A model generated the notes under the pieces. That model was not told where the DNA came from. It made no database searches and saw only the letters and a program-made list of their open reading frames with translations. The position numbers were made by a program, and so were the translations under genes. This document shows, one piece after another, positions 22,507-39,364 of a DNA stretch of 64,000 nt. Source of the stretch: a virus. Numbering within the stretch: position 1 is the stretch's first letter; every line of letters begins with the position of its first letter. The stretch covers positions 1 to 64,000 of IMG/VR virus record IMGVR_UViG_3300032294_002612. One strand, given 5' to 3'.

Positions 22507-22516
22507 AGATGAATAT

Positions 22517-22587: not shown

Positions 22588-23071
22588 CCCCATTATCAAA
22601 TTCCCAATGATGATTAGGACAAAGCAACATTAGATTATCTATATTATTAATCTCTGATAATTTGCAATCATCTGCAAAATCTGCAATAGATTTTTTATGA
22701 GCGACTTCAACATGATTCGAATAGCCACAGAATTGACAAATTTTTGGCATATCTTTCATTACAACTTTGCGTGAATGCCATCTAATGTAAGCATACGCTG
22801 CTCCATGAGTATGCTTTTCATAGATCATTTCTTTTTTAGTCGGATTTCTATTATATAATAAATTATTCTTGTTTTTTGTTTTGCAATCAAGACAGTAACA
22901 ATTTATAGCAAGATCTTTTTTAAGAAATAATTTTTTACAACTTTTGCAAGCTCTATATCCAGCTTTCCTTTTTGGGGTTATCCTATTATTAAAAGATGCG
23001 GCACAACTTTGTGAACAAAATTTTTTCTGTTCTCTACCCAAGAGTTCTTTATCACAATTAAAACATTTCAT
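22550..23071 (-). CDS. HNH homing endonuclease with zinc ribbons
   Basis: 173 aa. N-terminal treble-clef-like Cys motifs (CFNCDKE, CSQSC, CKSCKK, CLDC) precede an HNH domain: CQFCGY, VEVAHKKS, LCPNHHWEFD (about residues 110-160). Free-standing HNH enzymes spread by cutting alleles that lack them. The last residues (GMEGNAPSSTD) and the stop codon are read from the antisense strand of the tRNA-Lys-like gene. A TGTGTAAGTATATG element stands before the ATG. Confidence 0.8.
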   Translation of the reverse strand: MKCFNCDKELLGREQKKFCSQSCAASFNNRITPKRKAGYRACKSCKKLFLKKDLAINCYCLDCKTKNKNNLLYNRNPTKKEMIYEKHTHGAAYAYIRWHSRKVVMKDMPKICQFCGYSNHVEVAHKKSIADFADDCKLSEINNIDNLMLLCPNHHWEFDNGVGMEGNAPSSTD

Positions 23072-23086
23072 ACATATACTTACACA
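23072..23086 (-). promoter_or_regulatory. Candidate late-type promoter, TGTGTAAGTATATG
   Basis: Directly before the HNH gene. An identical block, TGTGTAAGTATATG, precedes the unrelated-position HNH gene at 47403. Confidence 0.5.
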
Positions 23087-23179
23087 TATTCGAAAAGAAG
23101 AAGCCTAAAAAATATATTTGTTAATGTTTCAAGACCCTCCCATCCCACAAAACTTTCTGAAAAAATTTCAAAAAACCCG

Positions 23180-23208
23180 TTGACAAAATCCTCAAAAAGA
23201 TTTATTCT
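23180..23208 (+). promoter_or_regulatory. Sigma70-type promoter, leaderless geometry
   Basis: TTGACA, 17 nt, TATTCT, then 6 nt to ATG 23215: one of the best matches in the window. Confidence 0.75.
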
Positions 23209-23214
23209 TAAAAC

Positions 23215-23478
23215 ATGAAAGCACTACTAAACAAAGTCAAACTGGCAATCGCAGACTCTAAACTTGGAGTTCTGACCAACCCTGTGTATCGTCTGAAATA
23301 TCGTCCTTACACGGATCACGGAAATGATGAGGTTCACACCTACTACGTTTCCCGACCCTTCGATGGGTTTGCCAATGGTATCACCGCCTACTGCTTCGGC
23401 AAAGGTGTTCGTAGGTTCCGCTTCGACGAAATCGTTGAGCGTGAAGTCGTATCGCTCTTTGGAAAATCTGTGGCGTAA
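23215..23478 (+). CDS. Small unrecognised protein upstream of the large RNA
   Basis: 87 aa, beta-rich (RPYTDHGNDEVHTYYVSRPF). No family recognised. The structured-RNA region begins directly after its stop, so this promoter may also transcribe the RNA. Confidence 0.6.
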   Translation: MKALLNKVKLAIADSKLGVLTNPVYRLKYRPYTDHGNDEVHTYYVSRPFDGFANGITAYCFGKGVRRFRFDEIVEREVVSLFGKSVA

Positions 23479-24321
23479 AGCCACGAATAACAATCTGCCC
23501 GACAATCAATATCGGAAATAAAAGAAGCAAAGTTAACCGGATCTTTGCGGTGGCGCGAAAGCGAAAATAAAACATCCGCCGAGGCAGATAAACATTTACA
23601 AGTAGCCCGAAAAAATATCGGAAACAAAAGCAGGACAGAATAGCGTCTGTCATCATATACAAAACGCACCGAGGCTTGACTTTAAATATCTACGAGGTAA
23701 ATGCCAGAGGGAACTGGCGCCCACGCGTAGAGAATAAACTCCCACAATTTTAGTTCTTTTACATCTTGAGGGCTGACTCCTCCCAGAAGGGGGAGAGCGC
23801 GCAGAAGAAAACCAGAGGAATTAACCTCCAGCCCACAACTTTGAGACGTTTGAATGGATTGATGGACGCATCAGACTTTCAGAACCGAGTTGCCCGAATG
23901 GGTGAAGGTGCAGTGCTTCGGGTAGCTGGTTACGGTGCTAAGCATATAGCTTAGAGTGCCACAGCACACGGCCTTCCGTCTCATAATACTCTCCCAAGCT
24001 CTGGCGGATACATCTCCGTTTACCTTGTGAGCTAGTCGTCGAAAGGCGATTCGATGTCGGTGCCGCCAGAAGGCACGGAGTCATAGGCAGGGAGTTCTGG
24101 CCTCCCTGTCAACACTTTCTTTGAAAAAAATCGCCGTGGAGTAACGGTCCACTAGTCAGAACCTACTGATGAATAAGAGTAAGCTGTTCGTGACAGCAAT
24201 AAAGGGGATGGTCACCGCCGACCCGCAAGCGGCTTGCGTTAGCTGGTTAGTGCTGCAAAGTATTAGCCCCCATTTGATCCGCAAGGAGACGATGATGGGA
24301 AGCATGGCAGCCGACACTTTC
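23479..24321 (+). ncRNA. Candidate large ornate structured RNA (GOLLD/ROOL-like)
   Basis: About 840 nt without a convincing gene, but full of strong hairpins. GGCTG (23771) pairs with CAGCC (23829) around two inner hairpins, one of them GAGG-AATTAA-CCTC. CGTC-GAAA-GGCG is a GNRA tetraloop at 24037. GTGCC pairs with GGCAC at 24060-24076, and CAGGGAG with CTCCCTG at 24088-24108. Length, phage setting and a tRNA gene directly downstream match what is known for GOLLD and ROOL RNAs, phage-borne RNAs of unknown role. I see no marks of rRNA, tmRNA, RNase P or a group I intron. The family assignment is inference; exact ends are unknown. Confidence 0.6.
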
Positions 24322-24393
24322 GCACCTTTCGCCAAGTGGTAAGGCCAGAGTCTGCAAAACTCTTATACGCTGGTTCGAATCCAGCAAGGTGCT
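24322..24393 (+). tRNA. tRNA-Cys(GCA)
   Basis: Acceptor GCACCTT/AAGGTGC, anticodon stem AGAGT/ACTCT with loop CTGCAAA, T arm GCTGG-TTCGAAT-CCAGC. No encoded CCA. Lies directly after the large RNA and directly before element copy 5. Confidence 0.92.
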
Positions 24394-24460
24394 CATTATC
24401 AACGAGTTACAGTGGCGCGCCCCGCCGCGCGCCGCAAGTCGTTGAAGACTAAGAACTTAT
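24393..24460. repeat. Composite palindromic element, copy 5
   Basis: Left half-unit ATTATCAACGAGTTAC, core GTGGCGCGCCCCGCCGCGCG, right unit GCAAGTCGTTGAAGAC then TAAGAACTTA. The left arm is truncated by the tRNA-Cys end. Confidence 0.75.
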
Positions 24461-24477
24461 AAATAATAAAAAGACTA

Positions 24478-24505
24478 TTGACAATCTTTTAAGATGTGAT
24501 AAAAT
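24478..24505 (+). promoter_or_regulatory. Sigma70-type promoter, near-leaderless
   Basis: TTGACA, 16 nt, TAAAAT, then 7 nt to ATG 24513. Confidence 0.7.
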
Positions 24506-24512
24506 ATAAAAA

Positions 24513-24965
24513 ATGGAAACACCACTCATTAAACTATTTGATGTTATTCTGCATCCAATTCTAAAGAAGTCATGGATTCATTTCCAAATTGAAGCTACCG
24601 ACGAAACAGGTAAAAAATACTATGACAATTCATCTAGTTATGGATGTTATGATCCTCCCTACCCTGCTTTCCCATGTTATGCTGGAGAAAATCATTTTAC
24701 AAATAAACATCCTTATGGTTATACATTAGAGCAATTTGATGTTAATAAAATAATGAGAAGGCTTGATACTTATCAATGGGTTGCTGGCATTAGGTCTGTT
24801 AAGTTTAGTAATCAAGTTTATGTTTGTCCTAAAACCTATGCTGTTTGGGAATTTATTAATAAGGAAATAGAAGGAACTTCTCACTTTGAAATAAAAGAGT
24901 TGCCCAAAAATACAAAAAATGTTCGCGTGTGCGACGAACAAAAAAGTATCCTATATGATTACTAA
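24513..24965 (+). CDS. Unrecognised protein
   Basis: 150 aa, rich in aromatic residues, Pro and Cys (GCYDPPYPAFPCYAGENHF). It is more AT-rich than its neighbours, so possibly from a different source. No family recognised. Enclosed by element copies 5 and 6. Confidence 0.65.
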   Translation: METPLIKLFDVILHPILKKSWIHFQIEATDETGKKYYDNSSSYGCYDPPYPAFPCYAGENHFTNKHPYGYTLEQFDVNKIMRRLDTYQWVAGIRSVKFSNQVYVCPKTYAVWEFINKEIEGTSHFEIKELPKNTKNVRVCDEQKSILYDY

Positions 24966-25028
24966 TCAATAACTTACAACAACGCGCCCCGCCGCACCGC
25001 CTAAGTGCTTGAATATCAACGGCTTACA
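24963..25028. repeat. Composite palindromic element, copy 6
   Basis: Left half-unit AATCAATAACTTAC, core AACGCGCCCCGCCGCACCGC, right unit TAAGTGCTTGAATATCAACG then GCTTAC. Confidence 0.75.
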
Positions 25029-25167
25029 TTTTCAACATGGAAAAAGCTGTCCAAGGAGTAGAAAACGTGCAATAGTTCACGCCAAATTTCGACAACAAGC
25101 CCCAGAAGATGTATTTGTAACAAAAATCATTTAGAACCATCAACAAAAATATTTATCAAAAAGTCAG

Positions 25168-25196
25168 TTGACAATAAAATCAAATAGGGTTATTCT
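25168..25196 (+). promoter_or_regulatory. Sigma70-type promoter, leaderless geometry
   Basis: TTGACA, 17 nt, TATTCT, then 6 nt to ATG 25203. The 140 nt before it, after copy 6, hold nothing recognisable. Confidence 0.75.
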
Positions 25197-25202
25197 TACA
25201 AC

Positions 25203-25928
25203 ATGATCACCACACAACTACCACTACCCATGCGCTGCTCCTCTGATGCTCTCGTTCAGCCAGAGCTTGAACTCAAACCTACGCGCAATCCTTCCTACTC
25301 TCGCGTCGAACGCTTCTTTGATTCTTTGGATCGTTCGCGTGTTGTGTCATACACCGACTACTGGAACTCTGTTGCCCCTCAAAAAACAGAAGATGCAATG
25401 TTGCGCTGGCTCTTTGCTTTTATGTCAGTCCATACGAGTTGGAAGTCCAACGTCAATGGCTACAATGCAATCAAGACTATGGATTGGTTACAAGACCAGA
25501 TGGTCTTGTTAAACAAGCTCAAGCATAGTGGCGTTGGCTTGCACAACAATCGCACAAAATTTGTCTGGCAATTCCAGAAAAACTTTTGGGGTGATGTCAA
25601 AAAGTATTCTCACGCTCCTACGGATTGGCGCGGTCATCGTGACGAGTTGGTTAGCGAAGTGCTTGGCCTTGGCAAAGCAAAAGTCTCTTTCTCGTTGGAG
25701 ATGATTCATCCCGACAAGTGCGAAGTTGTTTGCATGGACACTCATATGTTCCAAGCCTACTCGCTCGACCAAACCAAAGACGAAAAACATTACGATAACA
25801 TCGAAGCCCATTGGATCACAATGTGCCGTGCCTATGACGTTCCTTGCTACATTGCGCGTTGCCTTTACTGGGACGCAATCCAGAACAAACAGGATTCGCG
25901 CTACTGGTCGTATGTTTTTGAGGCGTAA
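25203..25928 (+). CDS. HhH-GPD (endonuclease III)-like protein
   Basis: 241 aa. The stretch LVSEVLGLGKAKVSF followed by VVCMDTHMF (about residues 150-180) resembles the helix-hairpin-helix plus catalytic Asp loop of DNA glycosylases such as Nth. The usual catalytic Lys position is not clear and no Fe-S cluster is seen. It may recognise modified or damaged bases, or be an inactive relative. Family similarity is by pattern only. Confidence 0.5.
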   Translation: MITTQLPLPMRCSSDALVQPELELKPTRNPSYSRVERFFDSLDRSRVVSYTDYWNSVAPQKTEDAMLRWLFAFMSVHTSWKSNVNGYNAIKTMDWLQDQMVLLNKLKHSGVGLHNNRTKFVWQFQKNFWGDVKKYSHAPTDWRGHRDELVSEVLGLGKAKVSFSLEMIHPDKCEVVCMDTHMFQAYSLDQTKDEKHYDNIEAHWITMCRAYDVPCYIARCLYWDAIQNKQDSRYWSYVFEA

Positions 25929-25936
25929 AATAATCC

Positions 25937-25965
25937 TTGCAATAAATCTCAAAATCCAATACATT
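25937..25965 (+). promoter_or_regulatory. Sigma70-type promoter, leaderless geometry
   Basis: TTGCAA, 17 nt, TACATT, then 6 nt to ATG 25972. Confidence 0.6.
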
Positions 25966-25971
25966 AAGAAC

Positions 25972-26196
25972 ATGAACAAAACCACTACCATCATCACCCG
26001 CCGTTCACCCTTCACCCAAAAAGTTAACAGGATGGAGATTCCTCTCTCCCATTCGGAGTTTGAGAAGAGGGCAATTCTTTGGCAGTCTGGGATGCTCATC
26101 CAAGATGCCTTTCCGATGCTCGACGCTGATCAGCGCGAGTTCATCAAAACTGGTATCACTCCCGAAGAGTGGGAACAGATGTTTGGAGAAGACTAA
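25972..26196 (+). CDS. Small unrecognised protein
   Basis: 74 aa (MNKTTTIITRRSPFTQKVNR...), C-terminal helix GITPEEWEQMFGED. The promoter sets the start; a longer upstream frame runs through the HhH-GPD-like gene and is rejected. Confidence 0.6.
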   Translation: MNKTTTIITRRSPFTQKVNRMEIPLSHSEFEKRAILWQSGMLIQDAFPMLDADQREFIKTGITPEEWEQMFGED

Positions 26197-26217
26197 TATA
26201 GAAAGGAGGGAAATATA

Positions 26218-26388
26218 ATGAAACTAATCGAAGGTGCTATCTATAATTACAAAGGGGAATCCGTTCGATTCCGTAAGGAAGTCGGAGTGGTCTCGCTCTT
26301 GTCGCGTCGTAAAAAGTCTGGTTTCTTGGGTCGCACAGACCTCTTGAAGAAGGCTAACAAGACGCAAGTCGCCAAGTTCCTCAAATAA
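26218..26388 (+). CDS. Small basic protein with SH3-like N-terminus
   Basis: 56 aa (MKLIEGAIYNYKGESVRFRK...). As the second gene of its unit it has a strong Shine-Dalgarno (AAAGGAGGG, about 7 nt before the ATG), in contrast to the leaderless first genes. Function unknown. Confidence 0.6.
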   Translation: MKLIEGAIYNYKGESVRFRKEVGVVSLLSRRKKSGFLGRTDLLKKANKTQVAKFLK

Positions 26389-26389
26389 G

Positions 26390-26467
26390 CGTAAAGCTCT
26401 CGTAATCATGGGGTTACGAGGGCGCGCCCCGCCGCGCTGCGTAAGTCGTTGAATATCAACCACTTGC
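26390..26467. repeat. Composite palindromic element, copy 7
   Basis: Left unit GTAAAGCTCTCGTAATCATG then GGGTTACGAG (arms CTCGTAA/TTACGAG), core GGCGCGCCCCGCCGCGCTGC, right unit GTAAGTCGTTGAATATCAAC then CACTTGC. Confidence 0.8.
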
Positions 26468-26535
26468 GCGTTTATGCTTTCAGGAACCGTGCCAACTCCC
26501 AGAAAAATATTTTCAATCAAATTGCAAAAAAGGGT

Positions 26536-26564
26536 TTGCTCTCCCATACAAAACAACGTATTCT
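26536..26564 (+). promoter_or_regulatory. Sigma70-type promoter, near-leaderless
   Basis: TTGCTC, 17 nt, TATTCT, then 8 nt to ATG 26573. Confidence 0.6.
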
Positions 26565-26572
26565 TATGAAGT

Positions 26573-27352
26573 ATGAGAAACCTAAACCTAACACTGCACT
26601 GCGGCGGTCACGCCGTGGAATCCACCCAAGTTCAGCAAACCCCTACTCCCGCACCCACGGATTCGTGGATGCCCATCCCGCACTTCGCGCTCATCGAGCG
26701 TCTGCGCGAGATCGTCGGTAGTGCTGGCTTGACCATCACGCAGGAGGCTCACGCCCTTGCTCGTAACGGTCTCCGCTACTTCGGACTTTTCCAAGTCGCG
26801 GGAATCCCCAACTTCTCACAGGAGTCCAACATCGGGACTGTGATCGGCTTGCGTAACTCGCACGACAAGTCGTTTCCCGCTGGCATCAATGCTGGTTCTG
26901 CGCCTTTCGTGTGCGATAACCTCGCGTTCCACAACGAGATCAAAATCGCTCGTCGTCACACCAAGTTCATCATGCGCGACCTTCCTTCGCTGCTTTCGGG
27001 CGCGTTCGGAAAGTTGCTCAACACTTGGGGCAACAACGCCAAGCGCATCGAGGCTTACCAGTCTTGCGCGCTCAAGGACGTTCAAGCGCACGACCTCATC
27101 GCCAAGGCTTACCGCTGTGGCGCAGTGAGCAAGACCGCTCTGGCGGACGTTCTCGACCAGTGGCACAACCCCGAACACGCCGAGTGGTCGGAGCAGAAGA
27201 ACCTCTGGGGTCTTCACAACTCCTTCACCAACGTCATGCGCGGAAACGTGCTCGCGTTGCCCAAGCGTAGCGATGCGCTTCACGGACTTCTCGACCCTAT
27301 CGCTGGCGTAGCGCTGGCGAGGGCGGAAGACGCCGAGGCCATCACGGTCTAA
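26573..27352 (+). CDS. DUF932-like phage/plasmid protein
   Basis: 259 aa. The middle shows the DUF932 signature: GLRNSHDKSFPAGINAG, then APFVCDNLAFHNEI and ARRHTKF (about residues 80-130). The family is widespread in phages and plasmids; its activity is not established. Followed by a strong terminator, so it is a single-gene unit. Confidence 0.65.
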   Translation: MRNLNLTLHCGGHAVESTQVQQTPTPAPTDSWMPIPHFALIERLREIVGSAGLTITQEAHALARNGLRYFGLFQVAGIPNFSQESNIGTVIGLRNSHDKSFPAGINAGSAPFVCDNLAFHNEIKIARRHTKFIMRDLPSLLSGAFGKLLNTWGNNAKRIEAYQSCALKDVQAHDLIAKAYRCGAVSKTALADVLDQWHNPEHAEWSEQKNLWGLHNSFTNVMRGNVLALPKRSDALHGLLDPIAGVALARAEDAEAITV

Positions 27353-27372
27353 ATTCTGAGACGCACAAAAGG

Positions 27373-27402
27373 GCTTGACAGGGCAACCTGTCAAGCTTTT
27401 TT
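27373..27402 (+). terminator. Intrinsic terminator
   Basis: Perfect stem GCTTGACAGG/CCTGTCAAGC with GCAA loop, then TTTTTT. Confidence 0.9.
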
Positions 27403-27422
27403 CTTTGTAAAAATTCATTGTT

Positions 27423-27502
27423 ATGTAAGTCGTTCATTTCCAGGCACTTACGCCGCCGCGCCCCGCCGCCGTGCGTAACTCGTTGAGTATCAGCCACTTA
27501 CA
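27423..27502. repeat. Composite palindromic element, copy 8
   Basis: Left unit GTAAGTCGTTCATTTCC then AGGCACTTAC, core GCCGCCGCGCCCCGCCGCCG, right unit GTAACTCGTTGAGTATC then AGCCACTTAC. Confidence 0.8.
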
Positions 27503-27520
27503 TTTTAATGCAAAAATATC

Positions 27521-27549
27521 TTGACGCCGCGCACAAAACAAGTTACCTT
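27521..27549 (+). promoter_or_regulatory. Sigma70-type promoter
   Basis: TTGACG, 17 nt, TACCTT, then 11 nt to ATG 27561. Confidence 0.5.
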
Positions 27550-27560
27550 GAGGCTTCACC

Positions 27561-27887
27561 ATGACACTAAATGAAATCCAAGCCATTGCCAACCTCACCG
27601 CAAAATTTCTCGGACTCTCAATCAAACCCAAGGCCGAAATTACTACCAATAAACGAGGCCGCGCCTACACCACGCAGGGCCGCTTCAACATTCCAGAGTG
27701 GGCCTTCAAGCACGGAGAAAAGTTTGTCATCTACTACGTTGTCCACGAAGTCTGTCACTTCTATGGAGGGACATTAGATCACGGCAAACTATTTTGTCAA
27801 GTCGAAGATCGCGCACTAAAATTTTGGGGGCTTTACATTCAACGCAAAAAAGTTTATCCTGAACCTCACTCAATATTCAAACTATGA
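27561..27887 (+). CDS. Putative zinc metalloprotease (SprT/WLM-like)
   Basis: 108 aa. The zincin motif HEVCH is at about residues 62-66 (YVVHEVCHFYGG), and His71-Gly-type residues follow. Size and pattern resemble minimal SprT-like domains, which often clear DNA-bound proteins. Activity is inferred. ATGA overlap with the next gene. Confidence 0.6.
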   Translation: MTLNEIQAIANLTAKFLGLSIKPKAEITTNKRGRAYTTQGRFNIPEWAFKHGEKFVIYYVVHEVCHFYGGTLDHGKLFCQVEDRALKFWGLYIQRKKVYPEPHSIFKL

Positions 27888-28129
27888 AAACCATCACGCC
27901 ATCAGACACAAGAGGAGAAATGCTCGTCATTGGAGACTATGTTAAATACAATGATATTGTATGGGAGATAGTCGATTTTGAAGATGGAAGCGGAAAATAC
28001 TGGGACGACGACTACGAAGAACACGCGAGCCTGTTATTGAGTCCAAGATCCCAAGAAGGTGAAAATATTTGGATAGAGGATTATGAAGTTGAGCAAACTG
28101 AACATCAACAATTATATTTTGAATTATGA
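27884..28129 (+). CDS. Small acidic protein
   Basis: 81 aa, acidic, beta-rich (GDYVKYNDIVWEIVDFEDGSG). This looks like a small SH3-like or Tudor-like barrel. No family assigned. Coupled by ATGA on both sides. Confidence 0.55.
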   Translation: MKTITPSDTRGEMLVIGDYVKYNDIVWEIVDFEDGSGKYWDDDYEEHASLLLSPRSQEGENIWIEDYEVEQTEHQQLYFEL

Positions 28130-28218
28130 AAGCTATTGTTCTATTTGTCGCCCTACCTGTTACTATTTTGGTTTGGTCGTTTGCTATTTATGGTGTGATT
28201 AATTTTTTGGGGTGGTAG
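28126..28218 (+). CDS. Micro-membrane protein (30 aa) ending inside tRNA-Met
   Basis: MKAIVLFVALPVTILVWSFA then IYGVINFLGW: almost entirely one membrane helix. It starts by ATGA overlap, and its last codons and TAG stop lie in the first 10 nt of the tRNA gene. Function unknown. Confidence 0.5.
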   Translation: MKAIVLFVALPVTILVWSFAIYGVINFLGW

Positions 28219-28281
28219 CTCAATGGTTAGAGCGTGCGGCTCATAATCGCTTGGTTGTCGGTTCGAATCCGACCCGCCCCA
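28209..28281 (+). tRNA. tRNA-Met(CAT) (or Ile2)
   Basis: Acceptor GGGGTGG/CCGCCCC, D arm GCTC/GAGC, anticodon loop CTCATAA, T arm GTCGG-TTCGAAT-CCGAC. The first pair of the anticodon stem is weak. CAT could decode Met or, if modified, AUA Ile. No CCA is encoded. Confidence 0.88.
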
Positions 28282-28358
28282 CATCTATTTGAATATCAAT
28301 GACTTACAGATGCGAGTCGGGCGCGCCGCCGTAACTATTTGGCGATCAAGCACTTACA
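28282..28358. repeat. Composite palindromic element, copy 9 (degenerate)
   Basis: Left unit TATTTGAATATCAATGACTT, core ATGCGAGTCGGGCGCGCCGCC, right unit GTAACTATTTGGCGATC then AAGCACTTAC. The core lacks the GCGCCCCGC block seen in others. Confidence 0.65.
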
Positions 28359-28365
28359 AAAATAC

Positions 28366-28394
28366 TTGACACAGATCACAAAACCCCATAGTAT
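28366..28394 (+). promoter_or_regulatory. Sigma70-type promoter, leaderless geometry
   Basis: TTGACA, 17 nt, TAGTAT, then 6 nt to ATG 28401. Confidence 0.7.
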
Positions 28395-28400
28395 TTAGGT

Positions 28401-28661
28401 ATGCAAGATTACAAATTGCCCAAAGACACCTACTCCTCCGCTCGCTATGACGAGTTGCACTTTGCCGTTGCACACTACGGAACACAGATGCACAGAGGCT
28501 TGTGGGATATGCTCGTTGACGCTGGTATGACCAAACGCCAAATTTTTTCTGAATACATGAAAGTTATTCGCACTACTACGGCTGTCAACAATGACATCCT
28601 GCATTGTGTTGGAGCTTTCAAGACAAAAAAACCTACGGACAATGTAATGTTTTCAAGATAA
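28401..28661 (+). CDS. Small unrecognised protein upstream of rIIB
   Basis: 86 aa, helical (HRGLWDMLVDAGMTKRQIFSE). No family recognised. Own promoter with 6-nt gap. Confidence 0.6.
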   Translation: MQDYKLPKDTYSSARYDELHFAVAHYGTQMHRGLWDMLVDAGMTKRQIFSEYMKVIRTTTAVNNDILHCVGAFKTKKPTDNVMFSR

Positions 28662-28665
28662 CCTA

Positions 28666-28694
28666 TTGACAACCCAACCAAAACCAAGTAAGAT
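28666..28694 (+). promoter_or_regulatory. Sigma70-type promoter, near-leaderless
   Basis: TTGACA, 17 nt, TAAGAT, then 5 nt to ATG 28700 (8 nt to a second ATG). Confidence 0.65.
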
Positions 28695-28699
28695 CATAA

Positions 28700-29575
28700 A
28701 TGATGAAAACGCTAAACGCACTAATCAAAACCGACGAGTCCATCACCGCAGTTCTTGATGGAGTTCCCAAGACGATGAGTTGTAACCATCCGTCTTTCAC
28801 CGAGGCGATCACTTGCCTCGCTACTGGAGACTACGAAACTCTCGACACCTTGTTCGATGTTTCCGAGTCTATCACCCGCAAGTTCAATGCCGATAATGTC
28901 GGCGGTGTGGAGATCACCGATGGTGTGATCTACTACCAAGGCGAACCTGTCCACAACTATGTCGTTGATCGTATCTTCGACTTCATGGACGAGGGCTTGC
29001 CGTTCCAACCGCTTGCGAAGTTCCTTGGCAAACTCATGGAGAATCCTTCTCGCCGTGCGGTTTCGGAGCTTTACACGTTCCTTGAACACAAGCATCTTCC
29101 GATCTGTGAGGATGGCGACTTCCTTGCTTACAAGAGTGTTCGCCAAGACTATATGGATCACCATAGCGGCAAGTTCTTCAATGGTGTTGGTGAGGTCTTG
29201 GAAATGCCTCGCAACGCTGTCTGCGACGATGCCGATGTGGGTTGCTCTTACGGCTTCCATGCTGGTAGTCATGCGTATGCCAGCACTTTCGGTGGCGGCG
29301 ACTCGCGCCTTGTGATCGTCAAGATCAATCCTGCCGATGTTGTGTCGGTTCCGAAAGATTGCAACTGTCAGAAGTTGCGGACTTCACGCTACGAGGTTGT
29401 CAAGGACTTTGAGCGTGTGTATCGTAGTCCACTCAATACGGAGTTCACTCCAGACTGGCATCGTAGCGAATACGATGACGAGGACTACGAGGATGAGGAT
29501 TCTGGTTGCACGGACAAAAACTGCAACTACCATAATGTGAGGGATAGCAAAGGCCGCTTCATGCGGAAGCGGTAG
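28700..29575 (+). CDS. rIIB: rIIB-like protein
   Basis: 291 aa. The conserved rIIB block is present: NPSRRAVSELYTFLEH, LPICEDGDFLAYKSV, DHHSGKFFNGVGEVLEMPR, CSYGFHAGSHAYA and VIVKINPADVVSVPKDC (about residues 110-230). An acidic stretch and a Cys/His-containing tail follow. In T4, rIIB acts with rIIA at the membrane in lysis timing and exclusion by prophages. The rIIA-like gene is next. Role here is inferred by homology. Confidence 0.85.
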   Translation: MMKTLNALIKTDESITAVLDGVPKTMSCNHPSFTEAITCLATGDYETLDTLFDVSESITRKFNADNVGGVEITDGVIYYQGEPVHNYVVDRIFDFMDEGLPFQPLAKFLGKLMENPSRRAVSELYTFLEHKHLPICEDGDFLAYKSVRQDYMDHHSGKFFNGVGEVLEMPRNAVCDDADVGCSYGFHAGSHAYASTFGGGDSRLVIVKINPADVVSVPKDCNCQKLRTSRYEVVKDFERVYRSPLNTEFTPDWHRSEYDDEDYEDEDSGCTDKNCNYHNVRDSKGRFMRKR

Positions 29576-29592
29576 TCGGTGGTGCGACAAAA

Positions 29593-29631
29593 GGGGGTGA
29601 GGCTTGTGGTGGGCCTCACCCCCAACTTTTT
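29593..29631 (+). terminator. Intrinsic terminator after rIIB
   Basis: GGGGGTGAGGC, loop, GCCTCACCCCC, then AACTTTTT. Confidence 0.85.
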
Positions 29632-29647
29632 GTAGGCATTGTGTTTG

Positions 29648-29726
29648 TTGTAAGTTGTTCTTATTCAACTACTTGCATCGCCGCGCCCCGCCGCGCCGCG
29701 TAAGTCGTTGGTATTCAACGTGTTAA
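29648..29726. repeat. Composite palindromic element, copy 10
   Basis: Left unit GTAAGTTGTTCTTATTC then AACTACTTGC, core TCGCCGCGCCCCGCCGCGCC, right unit GTAAGTCGTTGGTATTC then AACGTGTTA. It separates rIIB from rIIA. Confidence 0.8.
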
Positions 29727-29745
29727 ATTTTTTTGCAAAAACTGC

Positions 29746-29774
29746 TTGCCATATCACTCAAATACCGCTATTCT
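29746..29774 (+). promoter_or_regulatory. Sigma70-type promoter for rIIA
   Basis: TTGCCA, 17 nt, TATTCT. An upstream ATG overlaps the -35 box, so the start must be the ATG at 29797, leaving a leader of about 16 nt without Shine-Dalgarno. Confidence 0.6.
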
Positions 29775-29796
29775 AAAAACTCAACCTACTACTACA

Positions 29797-32043
29797 ATGA
29801 TCGTTACACAAACCAAAGCTAATGTCGTCACGCAAGGTGTTCAAGGTGCTGTTTCTTTCGGCATCAAACAAGAAGGTCTTGCCCACATCTTCAACGTCCT
29901 CCGCAACCAGTTGTATTCGGACAAGATTCTTGCAGTCTTGCGCGAGTATTCCTGTAACGCTGTTGACGCTCACACGGAAGCAGGACACAATCGCCCGATT
30001 GAGGTCACGCTTCCTTCTCGTCTGTCTCTGGAACTCAAGATTCGTGACTATGGCACGGGCCTTTCCGAAACTGACATTCAAGAGATTTATGCTTTCTATG
30101 GTGAATCAACGAAGCGTAAGAGCAACTCCCTCATCGGGCAGTTAGGTCTTGGCAGTAAGTCCGCTTTTGCCTATGGTGACAACTTTGTCATCAATAGCTA
30201 CTACAACGGCGTCAAGACTATCTACAACGCTTACATTGATCCCTCGCAGATCGGTCAAATCGCTAAACTCGCATCTGCTTCGACTAACGAAGCGAATGGT
30301 GTTGAAATTGTGATTCCGGTCAAACCCGCCGACTGCGAAAATTTCGTCAATACTGCTCGTAGCTTGTTCACCTTCTTCAAGGTCAAGCCTATCGTGCGCG
30401 GTGCTGCTAACTTCACTTACGAAGAAAAGCCTTCCATTTATAGTGGCGCGGATTGGCGCATCTTCAAGGCAGATCGTAACTCCTATGGTCGTAACTGCGT
30501 TGCTGTCATGGGCAATATCGGCTACACCATTTCCTCGTCTGCTCTCAAACTCGATGAGAACAATGATGCCGAGGCAACTATCGAACGCTTGCTGTCTAAC
30601 TGCGACATTCAACTCGACGTTCCGATTGGCGAACTCGACATCGCGGCCTCGCGTGAAGGTTTGCAATACACGGATCGCACCATTGACAATATCAAAAAGC
30701 GCATCCTTGTCATTCGTGACTTCCTCGTTGCTGACATTACCAAGCAACTCAAAGGCGCACAAAGTCTGTGGTCGTTCAAGCGTATGCTTGGTGAAATGCA
30801 CAACTTCAATAGTCCCTACTATGTTGTGTGTAACGCTATGCGCGGCAAAAATGGTTACGATTACAACGGCAAATCTGTCAAAGACTATACCATCAACTTC
30901 AATAACTCTCGCGGTTTCAAACTTTACACTCCGCGCAAAGGTTACATGAATGGTTCTTACATTGTGAAAGGCAGTAAGAACGAGGACTTGACTCACCTTG
31001 TTACGCTCGACAGCGGCATGGTCATCGTGGAGAACACGAAGAAGATCAAGACGCAGATCGTCAACCACATCTTCCCCATGCTTCAGAATGATGGTAAGGT
31101 GATCGTGTTTGAGCCGCTTAATGCTGCTGATCGTAAGAAACAGATGGACGCTCTTGGCCTTGCTGACTCTGACATCGTTGACATGGCAACCTTGCCCAAG
31201 GTGTTGCTGCCTCGCGCAACTCGTCGTGCGAGCAACAATGCCCTCATGGTTAATCGCAGCAAACACACCAGCAAAGTGTTTTCGATTGATCCTAACTCCA
31301 AAAGTCTCTCGTCCTATCACAAGGTCAAGAGTGACTACTGGATGGAAGATGATCTCGACCTGTCCTCGCTCGATCCCAAGAAATACTGCTACGTTGAGAT
31401 TGAGCGATTCATGGGTAAGATCGACGGACATGAAATCAACCCGACAAGTCTAATGTCTTGCTGTGCCAAGATTGAAACTCTTGCCAAACTTACCAAAGCT
31501 AAAGGTATCGTTGCTCCTATCATCGTCGGTATCAAAGGTGGCGGCACTACGCTTAACAAAGCCAAGATGAGCAAACTCATGGACTTCAAAACTTTCTTCA
31601 CCAATGCGTTGAAGGAGATCGAAGCTCAAGCCAATGTCGGTGAGGTTCTCTACTCCGACGAAATCTACAACAAGTTTGCCAGCAAGAACCAATGCTTGCG
31701 CGGAGAACTCCGCAAACTGGTCAACGCCAACAATGCGCCGAACACGCATCGCATCTTGGAAGAAGTTGTTACCCTGCAAGCGCAATCTAATGACCTTACG
31801 ATCAAGTCTTGCATCGAAAGCATCTGCGGATACATCGGGGTTCCTTCAAAGAATGTCCGTTCCAAACGTAGTGCCAAGCTCGACGCTATGGAAGTCAAGG
31901 CGACCAAACTTGCTCACTCCATGCGCTTGCTGCAAGCGATTGACTCCTACAATCTCCAGACCTATCGTGAAGGTCACAAAGAGCATCGTGAGGCTTGTCT
32001 GGATTATATTCAGACCCGCGACCATCTGCTCGCAGGAGTATAA
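29797..32043 (+). CDS. rIIA: rIIA-like GHKL ATPase
   Basis: 748 aa from the start allowed by the promoter. The N-terminal GHKL ATP-binding fold is clear: N-box REYSCNAVDAH (about residues 46-56), G1 box RDYGTGL (about 80-86) and G2 box LGLGSKSAF (about 111-119), as in T4 rIIA. The C-terminal 400 residues are helical and divergent. With rIIB it probably acts in lysis control or in resisting host or prophage exclusion. A strong terminator follows. Confidence 0.85.
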   Translation: MIVTQTKANVVTQGVQGAVSFGIKQEGLAHIFNVLRNQLYSDKILAVLREYSCNAVDAHTEAGHNRPIEVTLPSRLSLELKIRDYGTGLSETDIQEIYAFYGESTKRKSNSLIGQLGLGSKSAFAYGDNFVINSYYNGVKTIYNAYIDPSQIGQIAKLASASTNEANGVEIVIPVKPADCENFVNTARSLFTFFKVKPIVRGAANFTYEEKPSIYSGADWRIFKADRNSYGRNCVAVMGNIGYTISSSALKLDENNDAEATIERLLSNCDIQLDVPIGELDIAASREGLQYTDRTIDNIKKRILVIRDFLVADITKQLKGAQSLWSFKRMLGEMHNFNSPYYVVCNAMRGKNGYDYNGKSVKDYTINFNNSRGFKLYTPRKGYMNGSYIVKGSKNEDLTHLVTLDSGMVIVENTKKIKTQIVNHIFPMLQNDGKVIVFEPLNAADRKKQMDALGLADSDIVDMATLPKVLLPRATRRASNNALMVNRSKHTSKVFSIDPNSKSLSSYHKVKSDYWMEDDLDLSSLDPKKYCYVEIERFMGKIDGHEINPTSLMSCCAKIETLAKLTKAKGIVAPIIVGIKGGGTTLNKAKMSKLMDFKTFFTNALKEIEAQANVGEVLYSDEIYNKFASKNQCLRGELRKLVNANNAPNTHRILEEVVTLQAQSNDLTIKSCIESICGYIGVPSKNVRSKRSAKLDAMEVKATKLAHSMRLLQAIDSYNLQTYREGHKEHREACLDYIQTRDHLLAGV

Positions 32044-32065
32044 TTGTTAGTGGTGTAGTGGTGGG

Positions 32066-32102
32066 TGCGGGGCGTGCCGTGTGGTGCGCCCCGCATTTTT
32101 TT
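32066..32102 (+). terminator. Intrinsic terminator after rIIA
   Basis: TGCGGGGCG, loop, CGCCCCGCA, then TTTTTTT. Confidence 0.9.
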
Positions 32103-32110
32103 GCATTAAA

Positions 32111-32191
32111 TTGTAGCACGTTGAAAATCAACCACTTACAACCGCGCGCCCGGCCGCGCGGCGTAAGTCCTTCATAATCAACAACTTACAT
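32111..32191. repeat. Composite palindromic element, copy 11
   Basis: Left unit GTAGCACGTTGAAAATC then AACCACTTAC, core AACCGCGCGCCCGGCCGCGC, right unit GTAAGTCCTTCATAATC then AACAACTTAC. Last copy; it marks the end of the GC-richer cluster. Confidence 0.8.
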
Positions 32192-32207
32192 AAAATCAAT
32201 TATTCTC

Positions 32208-32235
32208 TTGATCTATAGGTATAATGGTGTATAAT
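32208..32235 (+). promoter_or_regulatory. Sigma70-type promoter of the tRNA cluster
   Basis: TTGATC, 16 nt, TATAAT, 11 nt before tRNA-Glu. Confidence 0.65.
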
Positions 32236-32246
32236 ATAGGGAGAAA

Positions 32247-32318
32247 GTCGCCATCGTCTAACGGTTAGGACACTTGGTTTTCATCCAAGTAATCGGAGTT
32301 CGATTCTCCGTGGCGATG
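32247..32318 (+). tRNA. tRNA-Glu(TTC)
   Basis: Acceptor GTCGCCA/TGGCGAT, anticodon stem CTTGG/CCAAG with loop TTTTCAT, T arm CGGAG-TTCGATT-CTCCG. No CCA encoded. Confidence 0.95.
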
Positions 32319-32324
32319 CTTCAC

Positions 32325-32401
32325 GGAATGGTAGCTCAATTGGTTAGAGCGCTGCCCTGTCACGGCAGAGGTTGCGGGTTCAAGTCCCGTCCGTTCCGCC
32401 A
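32325..32401 (+). tRNA. tRNA-Asp(GTC)
   Basis: Acceptor GGAATGG/CCGTTCC, anticodon loop CTGTCAC, T arm GCGGG-TTCAAGT-CCCGT. The only tRNA here with an encoded CCA (32399-32401). Confidence 0.95.
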
Positions 32402-32405
32402 TTAC

Positions 32406-32479
32406 AGAGGTATAGCTCAACTGGTCAGAGCACCGCTTTGATAAGGCGGGGGTTGTAGGTTCAAGTCCTACTACCTCTA
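32406..32479 (+). tRNA. tRNA-Ile(GAT)
   Basis: Acceptor AGAGGTA/TACCTCT, anticodon stem CCGCT/GGCGG with loop TTGATAA, T arm GTAGG-TTCAAGT-CCTAC. No CCA encoded. Confidence 0.94.
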
Positions 32480-32490
32480 TTTGGCTTCAC

Positions 32491-32519
32491 CCTATTTCGC
32501 AAATATGGGGTTCACAATT
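32491..32519. repeat. TATTTCGCAAA...TTCACAA repeat, isolated copy
   Basis: CTATTTCGCAAATATG then GGGTTCACAATT between tRNA-Ile and tRNA-Ser. It matches copies near 35.2-35.9 kb. Confidence 0.55.
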
Positions 32520-32521
32520 AT

Positions 32522-32607
32522 GGGTAGATGGCTGAGCTGGTCTAAGGCGCTCGACTTGAAATCGAGAGAGGTGAAAGCCTCCGTGGGTTCGAATCCTACT
32601 CTACCCG
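32522..32607 (+). tRNA. tRNA-Ser(TGA)
   Basis: Acceptor GGGTAGA/TCTACCC, anticodon stem CTCGA/TCGAG with loop CTTGAAA, a long variable arm, T arm GTGGG-TTCGAAT-CCTAC. 86 nt, class II size. Confidence 0.94.
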
Positions 32608-32616
32608 CCCCTGTAT

Positions 32617-32649
32617 AAAAAAACTGGCGGCCCCTTTCGAGACCGCCAG
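32617..32649 (-). terminator. Intrinsic terminator (minus strand)
   Basis: On the minus strand: CTGGCGG, loop, CCGCCAG, then TTTTTTT. Near-copy of the hairpin at 32754-32786. Confidence 0.8.
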
Positions 32650-32716
32650 CTAAACATAGATAAATGAATAATCTAACAATACAGTCGGAGTTAACCCTGG
32701 CAGGCATTCTGACTAT
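32617..32716 (-). ncRNA. Candidate small RNA of about 100 nt
   Basis: A good promoter (TTGACA, 17 nt, TAATAT) on the minus strand is followed after about 100 nt by an intrinsic terminator. The only frame in between runs on through the terminator and antisense to tRNA-Ser, so a coding role is unlikely. Start inferred as 7 nt after the -10 box. Confidence 0.45.
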
Positions 32717-32722
32717 GTATTT

Positions 32723-32751
32723 ATATTATTACTATTTGCGTTCACTGTCAA
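32723..32751 (-). promoter_or_regulatory. Sigma70-type promoter for the candidate small RNA
   Basis: TTGACA, 17 nt, TAATAT on the minus strand, just after the upstream terminator. Confidence 0.6.
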
Positions 32752-32753
32752 AT

Positions 32754-32786
32754 AAAAAAACTGGCGACCCGTTTCCAGATCGCCAG
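32754..32786 (-). terminator. Intrinsic terminator (minus strand)
   Basis: On the minus strand: CTGGCGA, loop, TCGCCAG, then TTTTTTT. It ends the small-gene unit that begins near 33.25 kb. Confidence 0.8.
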
Positions 32787-32812
32787 CTTCTCACGAGCCC
32801 TCCCAAGATTAA

Positions 32813-32905
32813 TTATAAAAATAATCCCATACCAATCATAAATAACAATCCTGCTATTATTATTAGAGGGGCTATATGTTCATCCTCTATAGGGTTTCTA
32901 TTCAT
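32813..32905 (-). CDS. Micro-membrane protein (30 aa)
   Basis: MNRNPIEDEHIAP then LIIIAGLLFMIGMGLFL: an acidic head and one membrane helix. Last gene before the terminator. Function unknown. Confidence 0.45.
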   Translation of the reverse strand: MNRNPIEDEHIAPLIIIAGLLFMIGMGLFL

Positions 32906-32954
32906 GTGTGATTCCTGGGGCAACCGAGTGCCTTTTGGAATATTATTATTTACA

Positions 32955-33140
32955 CTATTTGTCGGCAAACTGGAGCAGTTCCTTTCTTATTTGGTTGCGC
33001 CTCATAGCGCCGCTTGGAGACTCATCCCTCTGCACATCATCAGAGAAATATACCTTGATCAATAATTTAATATTATTAATGTTATCGATTTGTTTGATGA
33101 TCTTCTGTTGAGCGTAACGTATTGGATCGTCTTGGTTCAT
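32955..33140 (-). CDS. Small unrecognised protein
   Basis: 61 aa (MNQDDPIRYAQQKIIKQIDN...), charged helical. No family recognised. Starts just after the 30-aa membrane protein gene upstream. Confidence 0.55.
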   Translation of the reverse strand: MNQDDPIRYAQQKIIKQIDNINNIKLLIKVYFSDDVQRDESPSGAMRRNQIRKELLQFADK

Positions 33141-35130: not shown

Positions 35131-35217
35131 GCCACCTTTACGTAGTAAAGGACCGTGTTTAAATGTGATAAAATGTTATCAATTGTACCAGGGTACTTAT
35201 TTGATTATTTCGGATTC

Positions 35218-35352
35218 CTTATTTCGCAATTTCGCTTTCGCAAATTGATTATCAATTATCATTTACTTATTTCGCAAAATATCATTCACAAATACAATTA
35301 AAATTAATTTTTATTTGCAATTATTTATTTCGCAAATATTAGTTCACAAATT
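35218..35352. repeat. TTATTTCGCAAA...TTCACAAAT repeats (three copies)
   Basis: Copies begin at about 35218 (degenerate), 35267 and 35325. Each has TTATTTCGCAAA followed about 5 nt later by TTCACAAAT. The last abuts the stop of the next minus gene. No gene is seen from 35131 to 35350. Confidence 0.6.
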
Positions 35353-35602
35353 AAGGAGTAATAATCCTAGGAGTATCTTCTTCCATCTTTTCTTTAAAAG
35401 ACTTCACCATTTCTTGGAAATCTTCTTCAGTAATCACATTCCAATGTTCGGGCGGTACGGTAGTTTCATAACCAGGGTTACCTTGAAAATCATCCGCCTG
35501 AATCAATTCAACTACTTTTTGCTTTGCTTCTTCTTTATTTTCGGCTTCAACGTCAATAATTTCAGAGAAGAAGTGCGTTACTTTTACTTTATATTTATTC
35601 AT
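35351..35602 (-). CDS. Small unrecognised protein (DpnD/PcfM-like pattern)
   Basis: 83 aa. The N-terminal YKVKVTHFFSEIIDVEAENKEEAKQKV pattern (read in blocks) resembles a small strand-helix domain seen in phage and plasmid proteins. Acidic C-terminus. Function unknown. Confidence 0.55.
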   Translation of the reverse strand: MNKYKVKVTHFFSEIIDVEAENKEEAKQKVVELIQADDFQGNPGYETTVPPEHWNVITEEDFQEMVKSFKEKMEEDTPRIITP

Positions 35603-35643
35603 AATCTTTTATTATATATTATTATTTGGCCATTTCCAATTAA

Positions 35644-35811
35644 TTAATCAATTGAAAAAATTACTTCTGTATTACCATCTTTATCCTCACTAGAGTAAAC
35701 TGACCAAATATTAATGTTTTCATCGCCATAACCGTTATCAATACTAATGGGGGTGTTGTCTGGCAAATCCTTTATAAACTTTCTAAGATCTCCAACATTT
35801 AATTTTCTCAT
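35644..35811 (-). CDS. Small unrecognised protein
   Basis: 55 aa (MRKLNVGDLRKFIKDLPDNT...). The pattern LRKFIKDLPDNTPISIDN is common in short phage proteins of unknown role. Leaderless promoter: ATG 6 nt after the -10. Confidence 0.6.
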   Translation of the reverse strand: MRKLNVGDLRKFIKDLPDNTPISIDNGYGDENINIWSVYSSEDKDGNTEVIFSID

Positions 35812-35817
35812 AAAGCT

Positions 35818-35846
35818 ATACTATTACTTATTTCGCAAAAAGTCAA
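35818..35846 (-). promoter_or_regulatory. Sigma70-type promoter, leaderless geometry
   Basis: TTGACT, 17 nt, TAGTAT on the minus strand. A TTATTTCGCAAA repeat copy (35828-35856) overlaps the promoter. Confidence 0.65.
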
Positions 35847-35856
35847 TCACAAATTT
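35828..35856. repeat. TTATTTCGCAAA...TCACAAAT repeat overlapping a promoter
   Basis: It spans the spacer and -35 box of the promoter for the 55-aa gene, a position expected for an operator. Confidence 0.55.
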
Positions 35857-35858
35857 AA

Positions 35859-36038
35859 TTATTTGGTTAGATTTGGTTCCTTTTTCATTACTGTTCCATC
35901 GACAAGACAAGGTGATTTCCAGTACTCATTTTCATTTATTTGGGGAGAGCTGATTCGCAATTCGCATTCCATCATGACCGCGCACCCGGCCAAAAAATTA
36001 ATTGCAATTAAATTAATTAAAATAAATAAATATTTCAT
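35859..36038 (-). CDS. Small lipoprotein
   Basis: 59 aa. Signal peptide MKYLFILINLIAINF with lipobox LAGC at residues 16-19, then a short polar tail with two more Cys. It starts 1 nt after the previous stop. Surface or inner-envelope location is predicted; superinfection exclusion is a common role of phage lipoproteins but is not shown here. Confidence 0.6.
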   Translation of the reverse strand: MKYLFILINLIAINFLAGCAVMMECELRISSPQINENEYWKSPCLVDGTVMKKEPNLTK

Positions 36039-36760: not shown

Positions 36761-37276
36761 TTAATTTAACTTTTGGCGACCTTTGAAATAATTTTGCCCA
36801 TAAGTTACAAATATTTCCTGACCTTTTTTAATTGGTTTAGTTGCAATCACATCTCCAATTAAATTTCTAAAATTGAATTGCCATTTGGTATTTGGTTGGT
36901 CTTGATGATTATACAACATTCCATAACCAAGAACCATGAACATAGAATTTCCATGTCGCGCGCAATCTTCGCATTTACAATTACTATTGCTATATAAATA
37001 ATTAAAAATTTGAGGATCTCTTAAATAATTAGATTTCCATGCCATTTGAATCATTGGGCATCTTTCGATTAACTCGCCTTCTTTGATATCTCTTGTGGCG
37101 AAAACTCCCAACCCCATCTCAGCACTAGCAAGTTTAACAATAACATTTTTAGGTTGATAATAAGTATTTTCTAATACCCTTTCAAAAGGGCCGAGATCTT
37201 TAGGGGTTTCCTGTTTAATCTCAATTTCTTTTTGAACCTCGGCGTCTTGTTTTATTTCCACTGCTTCTTCTTTCAT
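36761..37276 (-). CDS. SET-domain protein (putative lysine methyltransferase)
   Basis: 171 aa. A charged 45-residue head precedes a SET domain: GLGVFATRDIKEGELIE (about 55-71), a CKCEDCARHG Cys cluster, LGYGMLYNHQDQPNTKW (about 115-131, the NH-type S-adenosylmethionine-binding block), and KKGQEIFVTYGQNYF (about 150-164, catalytic Tyr region). SET enzymes methylate protein lysines. The target could be host nucleoid, ribosomal or phage proteins; unknown. Unusual in phage. Confidence 0.75.
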   Translation of the reverse strand: MKEEAVEIKQDAEVQKEIEIKQETPKDLGPFERVLENTYYQPKNVIVKLASAEMGLGVFATRDIKEGELIERCPMIQMAWKSNYLRDPQIFNYLYSNSNCKCEDCARHGNSMFMVLGYGMLYNHQDQPNTKWQFNFRNLIGDVIATKPIKKGQEIFVTYGQNYFKGRQKLN

Positions 37277-37323: not shown

Positions 37324-37396
37324 TCGGGATGGCGGGGCTCGAACTCGCAATCTCCTGCTCCCAAAGCAGGCGCCTTAACCATTGGGCTACATCCCG
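37324..37396 (-). tRNA. tRNA-Pro(TGG)
   Basis: Acceptor CGGGATG/CATCCCG, anticodon stem CCTGC/GCAGG with loop TTTGGGA; T arm GCGAG-TTCGAGC-CCCGC has one mismatch. No CCA. Confidence 0.92.
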
Positions 37397-38425: not shown

Positions 38426-39364
38426 TTACTCTCCAATGGCCTCAAGATATTCACGACCTTGCTTGGTCAAACGACGACCGCCTTGGGCAATCTCCATGAG
38501 ATTGTGTTTGAGCGGGTAAAGTTCAAACTCTGCGCGCAGAGCTTGACTTGACAAGCCAGTAACCGCACTGATATTTGTAAGAGAGCAAATGTTACGCTCT
38601 TTAAGAACTTTAAGAATTTGGAGTTCGGTATTTTCCAACCCAAGAGGGAGAATACCCAAGACACTTTTGATTCGACCCCAAATATTCATATCAATGTATG
38701 AAACATTGTGCCTACGCGCAAATTGCATAATATTATCTTTGGCCATGAGAGTAGCGTTACGAGCATTACCGCGACAAACGCTGGCAATATCCCGCAAAGT
38801 TTCTTCATCAAATTCCAGATCTTCACTGTTATTCTTGACAATCTGACCCAATTCATCGTATTGATATTCTTCCATGTGAATCATACGGCAACGATCTTTG
38901 AGAGGAGTAATGACCCTTTGCGGATCAGTAGTTGCAAAAATAAAACTCACCTTAGTAAAATCAAACTCAATATTATAATCTTCAAAACGAAGAGTATTCA
39001 TGTTGTGTTTGTTAGGATTGAGAACCGTAAGCAAACACGTTTGAATTGGGGCTGGCATTTCATGAACCTCGTCAAAGAAGAGGGTAATATGCTGGTCACG
39101 AACATATTGAAGAACAATGTCCTCAATAAACTGTCGCACGTTCTTGAGTGTCGAACAGTTGATAGTCAACATAGGCTTAACGCGGCCAAGAGTTTTGCTA
39201 CGCAAATTCTTGGCAACTTGAGTGGCAAGCATGGTCTTACCTTGGCCTCTCATGCCAACGATGAACATATGAGGCAAGATTTCTGTTTTCTCAAAAGCGT
39301 CGATATAAAAGCCGAGAACGCTTTTAGTTTTCTTTTGTCCAATCATCTCGTCGAAGTAATTCAT
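38426..39364 (-). CDS. RuvB-like AAA+ ATPase
   Basis: 312 aa. Walker A GMRGQGKT (37-44), Walker B LFFDEVHEMP (about 95-104), sensor 1 FIFATTDPQRVI (about 138-149), arginine-finger region LKDRCRM, and a C-terminal winged helix ending LTKQGREYLE. This is the architecture of RuvB, the motor that moves Holliday junctions. No RuvA or RuvC is seen here; it could work with the ERCC4-type nuclease or act as another clamp-loader-like ATPase. Confidence 0.75.
   Translation of the reverse strand: MNYFDEMIGQKKTKSVLGFYIDAFEKTEILPHMFIVGMRGQGKTMLATQVAKNLRSKTLGRVKPMLTINCSTLKNVRQFIEDIVLQYVRDQHITLFFDEVHEMPAPIQTCLLTVLNPNKHNMNTLRFEDYNIEFDFTKVSFIFATTDPQRVITPLKDRCRMIHMEEYQYDELGQIVKNNSEDLEFDEETLRDIASVCRGNARNATLMAKDNIMQFARRHNVSYIDMNIWGRIKSVLGILPLGLENTELQILKVLKERNICSLTNISAVTGLSSQALRAEFELYPLKHNLMEIAQGGRRLTKQGREYLEAIGE

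What the first reader, a model, noticed from the sequence alone, without database searches (positions are those of the whole stretch)
36761..37276. Phage-encoded SET-domain lysine methyltransferase
GLGVFATRDI, a YNHQ-type block (in place of NH) and a catalytic-Tyr-type VTYG are in order. Few phages carry such enzymes. It could mark host ribosomal or nucleoid proteins, or phage structural proteins.
Basis: partly seen in the sequence, partly recalled or inferred. Interest (0 to 1): 0.6.

Follow-up and report, generated by a model that had tools for sequence, protein, structure and literature searches.

The report
Phage SET-domain protein methyltransferase
The gene encodes an intact SET-domain enzyme, the fold that eukaryotes use to methylate lysines on histones, carried by a bacteria-infecting virus and belonging to a large, unstudied phage branch of that family with an extra metal-binding-like cysteine motif; what it methylates is unknown.

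Summary
In detail: window 36761-37276, MINUS strand, is a 171-aa ORF with a full SET domain (Pfam 5e-16; best solved relative the chlorovirus enzyme vSET by sequence and by predicted fold). The cofactor and catalytic motifs are all present; 'YNHQ' is the normal NH motif, not a replacement. The record (166.5 kb) is a true tailed phage (terminase, rIIA/rIIB, clamp loader, PhoH). The gene is under purifying selection (dN/dS about 0.15) and keeps its place beside tRNA-Pro in the nearest relative. Phage SET genes are not rare in metagenomes: at least 263 IMG/VR loci encode relatives, though only one assembly among ~50,000 deposited phage genomes was hit. The window protein falls in a nearly all-phage clade marked by a CxCxxCxxHG insert in the SET-I region; the insert also occurs in more distant phage SETs and one Bacteroidota gene. 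Several 160-230 kb phages carry two such genes in tandem, next to an IMPDH/GMP-reductase gene. Activity and substrate are untested; a search for histone-like neighbours as substrates was negative. Most likely an early phage lysine methyltransferase acting on a host protein. Known fold, new phage variant.

The parts
36761..37276 (-). SET-domain protein, 171 aa, ATG start at 37276
   Evidence: dN/dS 0.15 against L168
37145..37276 (-). residues 1-44: charged N-terminal extension, mostly low pLDDT (blocks of 56-75), absent from vSET
37097..37114 (-). residues 55-60 GLGVFA: SET motif I (SAM site)
   Evidence: G57 in 48 of 49 D87 rows and 51 of 51 others
36950..36979 (-). residues 100-109 CKCEDCARHG: CxCxxCxxHG insert in SET-I, putative zinc knuckle
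   Evidence: 42 of 100 non-redundant rows, 37 of them with HG at the end; the three Cys are mostly present or absent together. Metal binding is inferred.
36890..36931 (-). residues 116-129 LGYGMLYNHQDQPN: SET motif III (NH, SAM/active site)
36785..36817 (-). residues 154-164 EIFVTYGQNYF: SET motif IV with catalytic-type Tyr159 and aromatic Y163/F164
   Evidence: aligns with vSET Y105/Y109
37324..37396 (-). tRNA-Pro (TGG) directly upstream of the SET gene, conserved in L168
37405..37686 (-). 93-aa protein of unknown function between tRNA-Pro and tRNA-Thr, 80% identical in L168
37705..37776 (-). tRNA-Thr (TGT), conserved in L168
37795..38316 (-). 173-aa protein with an AT-hook-like PKRRGRPSKAK stretch; candidate phage-encoded substrate (weak lead)
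   Evidence: 96% identical in L168; no Pfam hit; AT-hook read by eye
38426..39364 (-). DNA polymerase clamp loader subunit
   Evidence: 95% identical in L168

Best explanation
A phage-encoded, SAM-dependent protein lysine methyltransferase of the minimal vSET type (SET core without pre-SET or post-SET domains). It probably works as a dimer like vSET. Its CxCxxCxxHG insert in the SET-I region (the part that shapes the substrate groove in SET enzymes) probably binds zinc and helps choose the substrate. It is expressed with replication/takeover genes and most likely methylates lysines of a basic host protein of the nucleoid or translation machinery, helping the phage redirect the cell. Shown here: sequence family, predicted fold, retained motifs, purifying selection, phage context, neighbourhoods. 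Inferred: activity, zinc, dimer, timing, substrate.
For: Pfam SET over its full length. Closest solved relative vSET by sequence and by fold (Foldseek E 1e-10, TM 0.87 over vSET; model mean pLDDT 83, block means 88-97 for residues 41-160). Motifs I, III, IV and catalytic-type Tyr kept. dN/dS 0.15 against L168. Gene order clamp loader - AT-hook protein - tRNA-Thr - 93 aa - tRNA-Pro - SET conserved in L168. Across phages SET lies beside nucleotide-metabolism or recombination genes: IMPDH/GMP reductase, RNase H-like and ribonucleotide reductase, SbcD/SbcC-like. SET distances track clamp-loader (rho 0.72) and rIIB (rho 0.55) distances, in line with long residence in the lineage. Precedent: vSET methylates host H3K27 and is implicated in stopping host transcription (PMC7019647); an archaeal SET (Go1-SET) is listed with the DNA-binding protein MC1-alpha as target (PMC3980110).
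Against: No biochemical test. Bacteria lack H3, so the vSET analogy gives mechanism but not substrate. Lys/Arg-rich proteins are not enriched next to SET genes (1.5% of 132 near genes against 3.7% of 903 others), so no partner substrate emerges. One distant lineage (L039/L040/L042/L214/L225) has lost NH and the catalytic Tyr, so not every phage SET is an active enzyme. Zinc binding was not tested.
Confidence: 0.55

Rival explanations
1. Active lysine methyltransferase whose real substrate is a phage protein (for example the AT-hook protein two genes away, a replication/recombination protein or a nucleotide enzyme), so the mark regulates phage proteins rather than host takeover.
For: Conserved linkage with an AT-hook-like protein and clamp loader in window and L168; operon-like overlap with IMPDH/GMP reductase in the tandem-SET phages, and IMPDH present in 17 of 24 SET-phage records including the window's own; in phages L008/L171 and L170 the next gene encodes a small basic protein, with a histone-tail-like stretch (KTQKKRRAPRASGRKTTAQKKT) in L008/L171.
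Against: Neighbours differ between lineages; Lys/Arg-rich neighbours are not enriched; the AT-hook protein was found only in L168. No IMPDH frequency in phages without SET was measured.
Confidence: 0.27
2. Counter-defence factor acting by SET-dependent modification or inactivation of a host immune protein.
For: Accessory-looking position between tRNA genes; faster evolution than neighbours (75% identity with L168 against 95% for the clamp loader).
Against: dN/dS well below 1; distances track core genes, unlike a typical rapidly exchanged counter-defence gene.
Confidence: 0.1
3. Catalytically dead SET fold used as a binding or scaffold protein.
For: A related phage lineage has W for Tyr159 and no NH, so pseudo-enzymes exist in the wider family.
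Against: The window protein and its own clade keep all motifs.
Confidence: 0.06

Closest known systems
vSET (PBCV-1 A612L, PDB 1n3j/3kma), chlorovirus H3K27 methyltransferase
   Same: Minimal SET without pre/post-SET; same motif order and catalytic-type Tyr; 35% identity in alignment; best PDB hit by sequence and fold; virus-encoded.
   Different: PBCV-1 infects eukaryotic algae and vSET has H3 as substrate; it lacks the CxCxxCxxHG insert and the ~40-residue N-terminal extension; it falls outside the phage clade.
Plasmodium PFL0690c SET (4rz0) and S. pombe Set7 (5h6z)
   Same: Next best fold and sequence matches.
   Different: Cellular eukaryotic proteins; 23-32% identity in the fold alignments.
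Small bacterial SET proteins (Bacillaceae chromosomes, Priestia plasmids)
   Same: Single-domain SET, 27-42% identity.
   Different: No Cys insert in the rows examined; separate part of the tree.
Bacteroidota Cys-insert SET gene L248 (G085)
   Same: Carries CKCEECSTHG and scores 163.8 bits with the phage profile.
   Different: Neighbours look cellular (phytanoyl-CoA dioxygenase-like and nucleotidyltransferase-like by eye); outside the window's clade.
'SET domain containing protein' of uncultured Caudovirales phages (BFVD A0A6J5L8Y2, A0A6J5SSB1, A0A6J5P3I3)
   Same: Phage SET proteins already annotated by name; A0A6J5L8Y2 is the top viral fold match.
   Different: 18-29% identity in the fold alignments; only a domain name in the records listed.
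phrog_28741 (unknown function)
   Same: Only PHROG hit, over the NH-to-Tyr half (E 2e-4).
   Different: Short (100 positions), not named as SET.

Membership tests
SET domain (PF00856) | Profile match over the whole domain above the curated cut-off | tested here: met
   59.4 bits against 22.4, positions 1-105/105
SET domain (PF00856) | Motif I GxG, motif III NHxxxPN, motif IV catalytic Tyr | tested here: met
   G55/G57, N123-H124...P128-N129, Y159
SET domain (PF00856) | SET fold | tested here: met
   AF2 model mean pLDDT 83; top Foldseek hits are SET proteins, prob 1.00; predicted, not solved
SET domain (PF00856) | SAM-dependent lysine methyl transfer | not testable with these tools
   needs purified protein
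vSET-type minimal viral SET | No pre-SET and no post-SET Cys cluster | tested here: met
   No second domain passes Pfam's cut-off; the protein ends 7 residues after F164 with no Cys there
vSET-type minimal viral SET | Uninterrupted small SET-I region | tested here: not met
   CxCxxCxxHG insert present here, absent in vSET
vSET-type minimal viral SET | Homodimer | not testable with these tools
   no complex prediction offered
Histone methyltransferase | Histone or histone-like substrate | tested here: inconclusive
   No basic protein enriched beside phage SET genes; host proteins not examined
Zinc-binding SET-I variant | Co-conserved CxCxxCxxH ligand set | tested here: met
   42 of 100 non-redundant rows keep all three Cys; relatives without the motif mostly lose all three (L012 and L026 second copies), L022 keeps two and L027 has one Cys nearby
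Zinc-binding SET-I variant | Bound zinc | not testable with these tools
   needs metal analysis or a structure

The most novel reading that the evidence does not exclude
A bacteriophage protein-methylation takeover system: zinc-knuckle SET enzymes, in some phages a tandem pair that could form a heterodimer, methylate lysines of bacterial nucleoid or translation proteins to redirect the host, a bacterial counterpart of the chlorovirus vSET shut-off.
Probability: 0.15. Interest if true: 0.75.

Novelty: new variant of a known kind. Interest (0 to 1): 0.42.

Why it matters
SET enzymes are the textbook eukaryotic chromatin writers, yet no phage member with a known substrate was found in the literature searched here (open-access library only). 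A conserved phage clade under selection, with a marker motif and tandem pairs, gives a concrete set of proteins to test for phage-driven lysine methylation in bacteria.

Tried and rejected
1) Single-sequence searches of viral and genome contigs found nothing; an alignment query was needed. 2) Histone-like or Lys-rich neighbours as substrates: no enrichment. 3) Shared neighbourhood between the window and the first homologous loci: none around SET; only the later hit L168 is collinear. 4) The Cys insert as a one-time invention of the window's clade: not supported, since it also occurs in separate phage lineages and in one Bacteroidota gene, and needs about 8 changes on a poorly resolved tree (126 columns). 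5) Recent acquisition by the window phage: not favoured, since SET distances follow clamp loader and rIIB. 6) Literature on phage SET enzymes: none found. 8) My first motif filter for SET genes was wrong and was replaced by a BLAST match.

Full report
What is there. Window 36761-37276 on the minus strand is an ATG-started 171-aa ORF. It matches Pfam SET over the entire model at 59.4 bits, and the closest solved protein is vSET of chlorovirus PBCV-1 (E 7e-11). N123-H124 is the canonical NH; the oddity is Q after it.

Is it a phage? Yes. The record is 166,536 bases and the window encodes a terminase large subunit (4406-6310), rIIA (29746-32043), clamp loader (38426-39364), PhoH-like protein and an endonuclease (phrog_8420, UV-endonuclease-like by eye); 28700-29575 is taken as rIIB because its homologues lie beside rIIA in other phages, not from a family search. 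Later stretches hold large tail- and capsid-region-like ORFs (by eye). Genes have few Shine-Dalgarno motifs (15 of 134, about 7 expected by shuffling) and A-rich leaders, as in L168, L169 and L180, while the other SET phages tested show 29-52%. From general knowledge this fits a Bacteroidota host for the window phage; it rests on home-made gene calls.

How common is it? In deposited phages tblastn found one 735-kb uncultured phage assembly, under two accessions. Closest are L168 (75% identity, 178-kb contig), L170 (63%, over a shorter stretch) and L169 (60%). In a sample of 296 Bacteroidota genomes 98 have a match to the profile, nearly all distant.

A phage branch with a cysteine insert. In an alignment of 34 relatives the signature is ERCP - R..Y..D - CxCxxCxxHG - LGYGM.YNHQD.PN - EIFV.YG..YF. 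The CxCxxC motif occurs in 42 of 100 non-redundant rows, followed by HG in 37. In a quick tree built without the motif columns the window protein sits in a starred set of 35 rows, 34 viral and one long-branched cellular row. The motif also occurs in other phage lineages and one Bacteroidota gene (L248), so it is not unique to this clade. Where the motif is lost, the three cysteines mostly go together, as expected for a metal site; zinc itself is inferred.

Structure. AlphaFold2 on that alignment gave mean pLDDT 83, pTM 0.69, with block means of 88-97 for residues 41-160 and low values in the N-terminal extension and the tail. Foldseek ranks vSET first (TM 0.87 over vSET), then PFL0690c and Set7. 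Among viral models the top match is a phage protein already named 'SET domain containing protein', so phage SET proteins are known by annotation.

Selection and context. Window against L168: dN/dS 0.15. The order clamp loader, AT-hook-like protein, tRNA-Thr, 93-aa protein, tRNA-Pro, SET is the same in L168. In about a dozen phages, mostly on contigs of 150-230 kb, the SET gene lies just before an IMPDH/GMP-reductase gene, often with overlapping ends, and in many it is a tandem pair; second copies keep the catalytic motifs. Elsewhere it lies beside RNase H-like and ribonucleotide reductase genes (L016), SbcD/SbcC-like genes (L035), or lysozyme-like and adenylosuccinate synthetase genes (L031). 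IMPDH is found in 17 of 24 SET-phage records, including the window's own at 70,180-71,130; phages without SET were not examined. SET distances correlate with clamp loader and rIIB distances, which suits long residence; related phages share much history, so this is not proof.

Mechanism. Most likely SAM-dependent lysine methylation by a vSET-like dimer. vSET is reported to trimethylate H3K27 and to be implicated in host transcription shut-off (PMC7019647); bacterial SET proteins with histone targets and an archaeal one with MC1-alpha are listed in PMC3980110. Bacteria lack H3, so a nucleoid or translation protein is my best guess for the target, with phage proteins second. A test for basic neighbours as substrates was negative.

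Verdict. Real, conserved, ordinary in fold, new in its phage branch and insert as far as the held literature shows; activity and substrate open.

Noticed in passing
window 16000-33000: GC rises to 0.39-0.51 against 0.30-0.36 in most of the rest, with about ten copies of a 76-105 nt repeat with a palindromic GC-rich core (GGCGCGCCCCGCCGCGC) spaced along it; looks like a repeated regulatory or processing element.
   Followed up: partly
window 35215-35861: Four copies of a 38-nt TTACTTATTTCGCAAA...CACAAAT repeat around and beside small genes next to the endonuclease gene.
   Followed up: no
L039, L040, L042, L214, L225: Phage SET lineage with the Cys insert but with NH lost and Trp in place of the catalytic Tyr (WWGQGYY in L039/L040/L042): a likely pseudo-enzyme branch.
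   Followed up: partly
L010-L012, L014, L018, L020, L021, L026: Tandem SET genes; in L012, L014, L018 and L026 the second copy has lost all three cysteines.
   Followed up: partly
L010 267-3274: SET phages with a Volactin-like actin gene followed by trypsin-like and subtilase genes.
   Followed up: no
L179 18594-19979; L022 10111-11448: Phage contigs encoding DUF1552 and DUF1501 proteins, which I recall as typical of Planctomycetota: possible host clue.
   Followed up: no
L031 8988-9980: Adenylosuccinate synthetase homologue near SET and an IMPDH-like gene; possibly base-modified DNA metabolism.
   Followed up: no
L008 171-3128: Two collagen-like repeat proteins upstream of the SET gene.
   Followed up: no
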